This document shows, one piece after another, positions 14,914-59,348 of a stretch of DNA of 64,000 nucleotides. Positions within the stretch are counted from its first letter, which is position 1, and each line of letters begins with the position of its first letter. The notes under the pieces are model-generated. The model saw only the letters and a list, made by a program, of their open reading frames with translations. It did no database searches and was not told the origin of the DNA. This DNA comes from Candidatus Bathyarchaeota archaeon. GTDB lineage: Archaea; Thermoproteota; Bathyarchaeia; Bathyarchaeales; Bathycorpusculaceae. Where the stretch lies: positions 75,077 to 139,076 of the forward strand of contig JAGTQG010000001.1 in assembly GCA_018396875.1 (NCBI GenBank), written 5' to 3'. The position numbers and the translations under genes are program-made.

Positions 14914-15310
14914 CACTGTTCCCTCTTAACGTTACAATCTTTATGCGGTACACGCTGCCGCTTTCCCATGGATACGTGATGTTCAACCATCCATGGCTGC
15001 CTATTTCCAAATCAAGCCTTGCAAAGGCTTGAGTAGGAGTGCTGTTTATGTAGACTGCTGAAACTGTGATTGCAACTTTTCCAGTGTTGCGTATGTATAC
15101 GCCTATGCGGTTAACCCTTGTTTCATTGTTGAACCAGACATCCTCTATGATGAAGCGTTCACCCATAACCTCCCTAAGATTCGCTGTAACCACGTATGTG
15201 GTAGCTGCGGCTATTGACATGGCGGCTACAGCCACAACCATAAGCAGAAGATTGCTTAACACTGGGCTTACAGCCCGTCTGTCCATGAGAAATCTCAAAA
15301 ACATGCACAT
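14888..15310 (-). CDS. Archaeal type IV pilin
   Basis: Small pilin precursor of up to 140 residues. MDRRAVSPVLSNLLLMVVAV is the classic archaeal prepilin pattern: two Arg, small residue, VSP, then a long hydrophobic helix cut by prepilin peptidase. The remaining 95 residues form a beta-rich head ending in GYYKAP. The real start is probably ATG 15286 (MDRRAVSP), because MCMFLRFL is unusual ahead of the basic motif. It follows the TadC-like gene by 14 bases and overlaps the large pilin-like gene. It is the likely main fibre subunit. Confidence 0.8.
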   Translation of the reverse strand: MCMFLRFLMDRRAVSPVLSNLLLMVVAVAAMSIAAATTYVVTANLREVMGERFIIEDVWFNNETRVNRIGVYIRNTGKVAITVSAVYINSTPTQAFARLDLEIGSHGWLNITYPWESGSVYRIKIVTLRGNSVEGYYKAP

Positions 15311-26913: not shown

Positions 26914-27035
26914 GCGGGGGTACCCGAGCCAGGTCTAAATAGGCTGTTGGGGCTTAGACCAGCCTAAGATAAGGGGGAGGACTTAAGATCCTCTGGCGTA
27001 GGCCTTCGTGGGTTCAAATCCCACCCCCCGCACCA
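26914..27035 (+). tRNA. tRNA-Leu (anticodon TAA) with a D-arm intron
   Basis: Gene of 119 nt plus an encoded CCA (27033-27035). The acceptor GCGGGGG pairs with CCCCCGC, the anticodon arm is GAGGA-CTTAAGA-TCCTC (anticodon TAA) and the T arm is GTGGG-TTCAAAT-CCCAC, with a long variable arm typical of tRNA-Leu. The anticodon loop is intact. The extra 34 nt lie in the D arm, at the position-22/23 junction. Removing them restores a normal Leu D arm (CCC / GGG stem, GG in the loop, AA at 21-22). Confidence 0.93.
26939..26972 (+). other. Intron in the D arm of tRNA-Leu (position 22/23)
   Basis: A 34-nt insert with a recognisable bulge-helix-bulge. The outer intron stem is TAGGCTG (26940-26946) with CAGCCTA (26960-26966). 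A three-base bulge AAA (26937-26939) follows on the left. The central four-base helix is GTCT (26933-26936) with AGAT (26967-26970), using one G-T pair. A three-base bulge AAG (26971-26973) lies on the right. Cutting after the second bulge base on each side removes 26939-26972 and yields the expected mature sequence. Confidence 0.82.
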
Positions 27036-46814: not shown

Positions 46815-47372
46815 ATGGCGAAAAAAATACCGGTTGAATTCATAGAAAACTTTTTAGTCGTCTGGGATCTTGCAGCAGGCTCAGAACTTTATAAGATGGG
46901 CTTTTATGGCAAACCTTTAGGCATACCAAAACCCAAAGTTCCAGAATTCAATGTCCCATTAATTCTAGACTTAATGGAGGGGTTATACCTTGCCGAGAAA
47001 GGAATCATAACAGTGTATGAGGGCGCCGACAAGCGGAAAGTAAACTTGAAAAAGCTCCGTCAAAAGGCAAGAACGCTGTACGAGGAGTTTGACGAAAAAT
47101 ATGCAGTTTATCGAGATTTGCGCGAAAAAGGGATGGTTGTTACTCCGGGCATAAAGTTTGGATGCGACTTCGCAGTCTATAAGTATGGTCCAGGATTAGA
47201 GCATGCGCCCTTCATGGTTTCAGTGAAAAAGGCTGCTTCAGAGTTAACAGCTACAGAAATAGTCAAGGCTGGGAGGTTGGCGACAACGGTCCGCAAAAGG
47301 TTCATAGTCGCGGTGCCAGACTTAGAGGTAGGGAAAGTTCGATACCTCATATTTAAATGGTTTAAGGCTTAA
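46815..47372 (+). CDS. endA: tRNA-intron splicing endonuclease EndA
   Basis: A 185-residue endonuclease that cuts bulge-helix-bulge sites. The N-terminal domain (about 1-80) and catalytic domain (about 95-185) match one alpha-type unit. Catalytic residues fit the Tyr-His-Lys triad: Tyr in CDFAVYKYG, His in GLEHAPF and Lys in TVRKRFIVAV. Two intron-bearing tRNA genes lie in this window. As a single-unit enzyme it may need a structural partner to cut sites at non-canonical positions. Confidence 0.93.
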   Translation: MAKKIPVEFIENFLVVWDLAAGSELYKMGFYGKPLGIPKPKVPEFNVPLILDLMEGLYLAEKGIITVYEGADKRKVNLKKLRQKARTLYEEFDEKYAVYRDLREKGMVVTPGIKFGCDFAVYKYGPGLEHAPFMVSVKKAASELTATEIVKAGRLATTVRKRFIVAVPDLEVGKVRYLIFKWFKA

Positions 47373-59231: not shown

Positions 59232-59348
59232 CGCCGGGGAGGGGATTTGAACCCCTGCGAGCCCGAAGGCCCACTGGCTTACTTGTCAAGGCCCCATTTG
59301 GCGTTTAAGATCTCGAGGCCAGCGCGTTGACCACTCCGCCACCCCGGC
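59232..59348 (-). tRNA. tRNA-Ser (anticodon CGA) with an anticodon-loop intron
   Basis: A 117-nt gene on the minus strand. The acceptor GCCGGGG pairs with CCCCGGC and the discriminator is G, as expected for Ser. The anticodon stem is CTGGC / GCCAG with anticodon CGA at plus-strand 59313-59315. A long variable arm and T arm (CAGGGGTTCAAATCCCCT region) complete it. A 32-nt intron (plus 59280-59311) interrupts the loop after position 37. No CCA is encoded. Confidence 0.94.
59280..59311 (-). other. Intron of tRNA-Ser at the canonical position 37/38
   Basis: The anticodon region CTCG can pair with CAAG just ahead of the three-base TAA bulge, with one C-A mismatch in the four-base central helix. 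Cutting after bulge base two gives the expected exon ends. The helix is imperfect, so the site is relaxed. Confidence 0.75.

What the first reader, a model, noticed from the sequence alone, without database searches (positions are those of the whole stretch)
26914..27035. tRNA-Leu intron in the D arm at position 22/23
The insert is 34 nt and the anticodon loop is intact. Removing it restores a standard Leu D arm. The ends form a proper bulge-helix-bulge: a seven-base intron stem, AAA bulge, four-base GTCT/AGAT helix and AAG bulge. Cutting after the second base of each bulge predicts exactly the expected junction. Non-canonical introns of this sort are known in some TACK archaea but are uncommon, and the companion EndA is a single-unit type.
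Basis: partly seen in the sequence, partly recalled or inferred. Interest (0 to 1): 0.62.

Follow-up and report, generated by a model that had tools for sequence, protein, structure and literature searches.

The report
Conserved D-arm intron in bathyarchaeal tRNA-Leu(UAA)
A leucine tRNA gene of an uncultured Bathyarchaeia archaeon carries a 34-base intron in an unusual place, the D arm; nearly the same intron is found across a whole order of these archaea, so it is real and ancient, but it belongs to an already known kind of archaeal tRNA intron.

Summary
Window 26914-27035 is the tRNA-Leu(UAA) gene of a Bathyarchaeia MAG. Removing 26939-26972 (34 nt, position 22/23) gives a complete Leu cloverleaf. 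Comparison makes this far stronger than one sequence could: at least 99 of 163 genomes of the order carry a 20-44-nt insert at the same site. An intron-less ortholog reads exactly as the predicted spliced product. The bulge-helix-bulge helices covary, including exon-intron changes GUCU/AGAU to GACC/GGUU. D-stem pair 10-25 switches C-G to U-A across the insert. The motif is a relaxed BHB: the exon-side helix is not adjacent. The endonuclease is not single-unit: the genome has two EndA paralogs, a catalytic one in the window and one without the catalytic His on another contig. This is the (alpha beta)2 pattern, and the catalytic subunit has the loop lysine tied to broad specificity; RtcB is present too. 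Introns at 22/23 are already described in archaea, so this is a new member of a known kind. The new points are its fixation across a bathyarchaeal order and an unexplained conserved loop motif, G(C/U)CA(A/G)A, in 66 of 89 distinct introns. Splicing is inferred, not observed.

The parts
26914..26938 (+). 5' exon of tRNA-Leu(UAA), positions 1-22
26939..26972 (+). 34-nt intron at position 22/23 (D arm)
   Evidence: intron-less ortholog G068 reads AGCCAGGTCTAA|GGGGGAGGACTTAAGATCC
26973..27035 (+). 3' exon of tRNA-Leu(UAA), positions 23-76, CCA encoded
26933..26936 (+). exon strand of the 4-bp central helix of the BHB (GTCT, positions 19-20b)
   Evidence: pairs in 97.8% of cells, with compensatory changes
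26937..26939 (+). 5' bulge AAA; predicted cut after 26938
   Evidence: AAA in 87 of 89, AAT in 2
26940..26946 (+). intron stem, 5' strand TAGGCTG
26960..26966 (+). intron stem, 3' strand CAGCCTA
26967..26970 (+). intron strand of the 4-bp central helix (AGAT)
26971..26973 (+). 3' bulge AAG; predicted cut after 26972
   Evidence: AAG 55, ATG 23, AGG 7, ACG 4 of 89
46815..47372 (+). EndA catalytic (alpha-type) subunit, 185 aa, with the His of the triad (EHAPF) and a Lys aligned to A. pernix K44 of the Crenarchaea-specific loop

Best explanation
A non-canonical archaeal tRNA intron at position 22/23 of the tRNA-Leu(UAA) gene. The precursor folds a relaxed bulge-helix-bulge in which exon bases 19-20b pair with the last part of the intron. 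An (alpha beta)2 EndA cuts after the second base of each bulge (after 26938 and 26972), and RtcB joins the exons, restoring D-stem pairs 10-25, 11-24 and 12-23. The intron is fixed and, most simply, vertically inherited across this bathyarchaeal order, with at least one loss. Shown by sequence: gene anatomy, junction, covariation, distribution, presence of two EndA subunits and RtcB. Inferred: that splicing happens, and that this enzyme does it.
For: Spliced gene is a complete Leu cloverleaf; unspliced is not. Same-site insert in congeners G001-G003 and in at least 99 of 163 order genomes. Intron-less ortholog G068 equals the predicted spliced D arm. Exon-intron compensatory changes: GTCT with AGAT, AGAC, GGAC or GGAT, versus GACC/GGTT. 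D-stem bases 10 and 25 change together from C-G to U-A across the insert in the Bathycorpusculum-type genes. AAA 5' bulge in 87 of 89. Two EndA genes, with the catalytic His in one only, and two in most relatives; RtcB present. The same genome has further inserts in tRNA-Lys(CUU), in the D arm of tRNA-Arg(UCU) and in the V loop of a tRNA-Met.
Against: No RNA data. In this species the BHB fold is 1.5 kcal/mol above the predicted minimum, and exon GGTCTAA can also pair with intron TTAGACC (26954-26960). The exon-side helix is not adjacent to the central helix. Six of 89 relatives have one mismatch and one has two in the central helix.
Confidence: 0.96

Rival explanations
1. The gene is a degenerate or misassembled copy and the insert is never removed; another tRNA-Leu(UAA) serves the cell.
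For: ARAGORN and Rfam do not see a good tRNA in the unspliced gene.
Against: Only one Leu(UAA) gene was matched in the own genome. All exons are intact, and the insert is conserved with compensatory changes in about 99 separate genomes.
Confidence: 0.01
2. The insert is spliced at a different junction, within the adenines around 21-23.
For: Adenines flank both sites, so a shift of one base on both sides gives the same product. D-arm inserts of other orders and classes read as 21/22 (L173, L174; G412).
Against: Only 22/23 puts both cuts after the second base of a 3-nt bulge; the last intron base varies (A, T, G, C) next to invariant G23.
Confidence: 0.03
3. Besides being removed, the intron does a job before splicing: its loop motif GYCARA holds the pre-tRNA in a tRNA-like or protected fold, for instance by standing in for D-loop bases that the BHB sequesters.
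For: Motif in 66 of 89 introns against 2.4 expected after shuffling, in 7 of 8 families with introns, at offsets from 5 to 25 while the stems around it change. It resembles the Leu D-loop sequence GGUCARA.
Against: Absent from 9 of 10 introns of family f7, and from the window's own species, which has GGCTTAGA. The one partner tested (V arm UCUGGC) does not covary: genes with V arm TCTGAC have GCCAAA or GCCAAT. Shared descent inflates the count.
Confidence: 0.15

Closest known systems
Non-canonical archaeal tRNA introns in Thermoproteota (positions 20/21, 22/23, 25/26, 29/30, 30/31, 45/46 and others; review PMC4090602)
   Same: Position 22/23 is on the published list; small size; removal through a (relaxed) BHB by an (alpha beta)2 EndA.
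   Different: Here the same isoacceptor carries it across a whole bathyarchaeal order, with a conserved loop motif. No paper found in the library describes introns of bathyarchaeal tRNAs.
(alpha beta)2 EndA with Crenarchaea-specific loop (Aeropyrum pernix, PDB 3P1Z; review PMC6379350)
   Same: Two paralogs; the alpha is closest in sequence to PDB chains 2CV8 and 3P1Z_B; its K39 aligns with A. pernix K44.
   Different: The beta-like subunit keeps both EndA domains and is closest in sequence to the M. jannaschii subunit 1A79, not to the A. pernix or Pyrobaculum beta chains.

Membership tests
Archaeal BHB tRNA intron | Removal restores a canonical tRNA | tested here: met
   natural intron-less ortholog
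Archaeal BHB tRNA intron | 4-bp helix flanked by two 3-nt bulges on opposite strands | tested here: met
Archaeal BHB tRNA intron | Strict form only: helix on both the intron and the exon side (relaxed forms lack one) | tested here: not met
   The exon-side D stem is separated by seven unpaired 5' bases, so it is filed as the relaxed form
Archaeal BHB tRNA intron | Cut after the second base of each bulge and ligation | not testable with these tools
   needs RNA or enzyme data
(alpha beta)2 EndA | Two paralogous subunits, only one with the full catalytic Tyr-His-Lys triad | tested here: met
   the second paralog has T in place of the catalytic His
(alpha beta)2 EndA | Heterotetramer assembly | not testable with these tools
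   inferred from homologs only
(alpha beta)2 EndA | Crenarchaea-specific loop with conserved Lys in alpha | tested here: met
   alignment to 3p1z_B: query K39 at A. pernix K44; role of the Lys from PMC6379350

The most novel reading that the evidence does not exclude
The order-wide D-arm intron is kept because its loop does something in the precursor before splicing (folding, order of modification or quality control of tRNA-Leu(UAA)), read through the conserved GYCARA motif.
Probability: 0.15. Interest if true: 0.6.

Novelty: new member of a known kind. Interest (0 to 1): 0.33.

Why it matters
It shows a non-canonical tRNA intron fixed in one isoacceptor over a large uncultured archaeal order, with clean exon-intron covariation and a natural intron-less control. 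That makes a good comparative case for how BHB introns persist and for EndA-intron coevolution. It also warns that a standard tRNA caller mis-predicts this essential gene in Bathyarchaeia genomes (ARAGORN gave a wrong start).

Tried and rejected
Single-unit EndA: rejected, two paralogs. Pairing of the intron loop motif with the V arm (UCUGGC): no covariation, not supported. A split (trans-spliced) tRNA-Thr(GGU): considered for G000:C6 because only a 3' half is present, but congeners have the intact gene and the break lies at a repeated hairpin, so an integration event fits better. The minimum-energy fold of the window gene alone does not show the BHB; comparative evidence was given more weight. 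The tmRNA hits are sub-threshold cross-hits to tRNA genes.

Full report
Identity. The window lies in a 1.25-Mb, 41-contig genome. The 75 named records with the same kind of intron are all archaeal metagenome or single-lineage assemblies, nearly all labelled Bathyarchaeota/Bathyarchaeia, including Bathycorpusculum, Bathyarchaeum, B26-1, B24-2, UBA233 and JdFR-07. One congener contig, G003:C7, has the same length (187262) as the contig of isolate SKYB16, which fits their being the same record.

Gene anatomy. The gene lies between the thermosome gene and tRNA-Arg(CCU) on one side and an ORF for a protein conserved in 55 of 61 relatives on the other; from memory of the family this protein looks like RNase P Rpp21. 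The insert is 26939-26972. Unspliced, ARAGORN forces a wrong start and Rfam scores only the 3' part at 27.2 bits, below its cut-off of 29. Spliced, ARAGORN finds a clean 88-nt tRNA-Leu(taa) with C10-G25, C11-G24 and C12-G23.

Comparison. Three congeners have the same-site insert with different stems: TAGGCT/AGCCTA, TGGGCGT/ACGCCTA and TAGGC/GCCTA. A pattern search of all 163 held genomes of the order matched 100; 99 have the insert (20-44 nt) and one, G068, has none and reads AGCCAGGTCTAAGGGGGAGGACTTAAGATCC, exactly the predicted product. Non-matches are not proven absences: one was masked by N (G123) and one had a shorter D loop but still an insert (G052). Over 89 distinct inserts the central helix pairs in 97.8% of cells, against 18-58% when slid. 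Three genomes changed both strands (GACC/GGTT), and dealing introns at random among exons never reached the observed pairing in 2000 trials, though shared descent is not controlled there. In the Bathycorpusculum-type genes D-stem position 25 is A and position 10 is U; these two bases are brought together only by splicing.

Beyond the order. In other classes of the phylum most matched tRNA-Leu(UAA) genes have no D-arm insert, but scattered ones do, at what reads by eye as 21/22 or nearby (G412, G442, G260, G267, G274). Within the class, G212 and G223 have D-arm inserts that read as 21/22, and the G223 one also holds GGTCCAGA. Whether these share an origin with the order's intron was not tested.

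Enzyme. The window holds the catalytic EndA (46815-47372). A second paralog is at G000:C2:8471-8725 (C-terminal domain); it aligns with M. jannaschii EndA but has T in place of the catalytic His. Most order relatives have two EndA genes. The alpha subunit's K39 aligns to A. pernix K44, the loop lysine reported as needed for broad specificity (PMC6379350). RtcB is present.

Other introns. Inserts in tRNA-Lys(CUU) (30/31 by eye), tRNA-Gly(UCC), tRNA-Tyr, tRNA-Ser(GGA), tRNA-Ser(CGA), tRNA-Leu(CAA) and tRNA-Leu(GAG), a D-arm insert in tRNA-Arg(UCU) and a V-loop insert in tRNA-Met(CAU) show that this genome carries many tRNA introns, several non-canonical. Positions and anticodons of these were read by eye; ARAGORN misnames two of them.

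Loop motif. G(C/T)CA(A/G)A occurs in 66 of 89 inserts against 2.4 expected when the interior is shuffled, in 7 of 8 families with inserts. It sits at variable distance from the splice site and in different stem contexts. It resembles the Leu D-loop sequence. A pairing with the V arm was checked and not supported. Its role is unknown, and the window's own intron has a diverged version.

Novelty. Position 22/23 is on the published list of archaeal non-canonical positions (PMC4090602), and broad-specificity EndA is known (PMC6379350; PMC7714728). No paper in the library describes bathyarchaeal tRNA introns, but only open-licence papers are held. The result is a well-supported new member of a known kind.

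Noticed in passing
window 59232-59348 (-): tRNA-Ser(CGA) with a 32-nt canonical 37/38 intron; ARAGORN with introns allowed miscalls it as Thr(CGT).
   Followed up: partly
L073 (G000:C20, about 15050-15155): tRNA-Arg(UCU) with a second D-arm insert in the same genome (AGCTTGGACA...AAAGCGC).
   Followed up: partly
L058 (G000:C32:4116-4220): tRNA-Met(CAU)-type gene with an insert in the V loop near 45/46, with CTGG/CCAG forming the putative BHB helix.
   Followed up: partly
G000:C6:30059-30131 (L161): tRNA-Thr(GGU) lacks its 5' half; the break is at a perfect hairpin TATCGGAAACTACGTTTCCGATAC that also lies beside a tRNA-Met in G001:C9 and near a tRNA-Pro in G000:C41. Congeners have the intact gene (two with an anticodon-loop insert). 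Looks like an integrative element at tRNA genes.
   Followed up: partly
introns of the order, e.g. L083, L137: Conserved intron-loop motif GYCARA of unknown role.
   Followed up: partly
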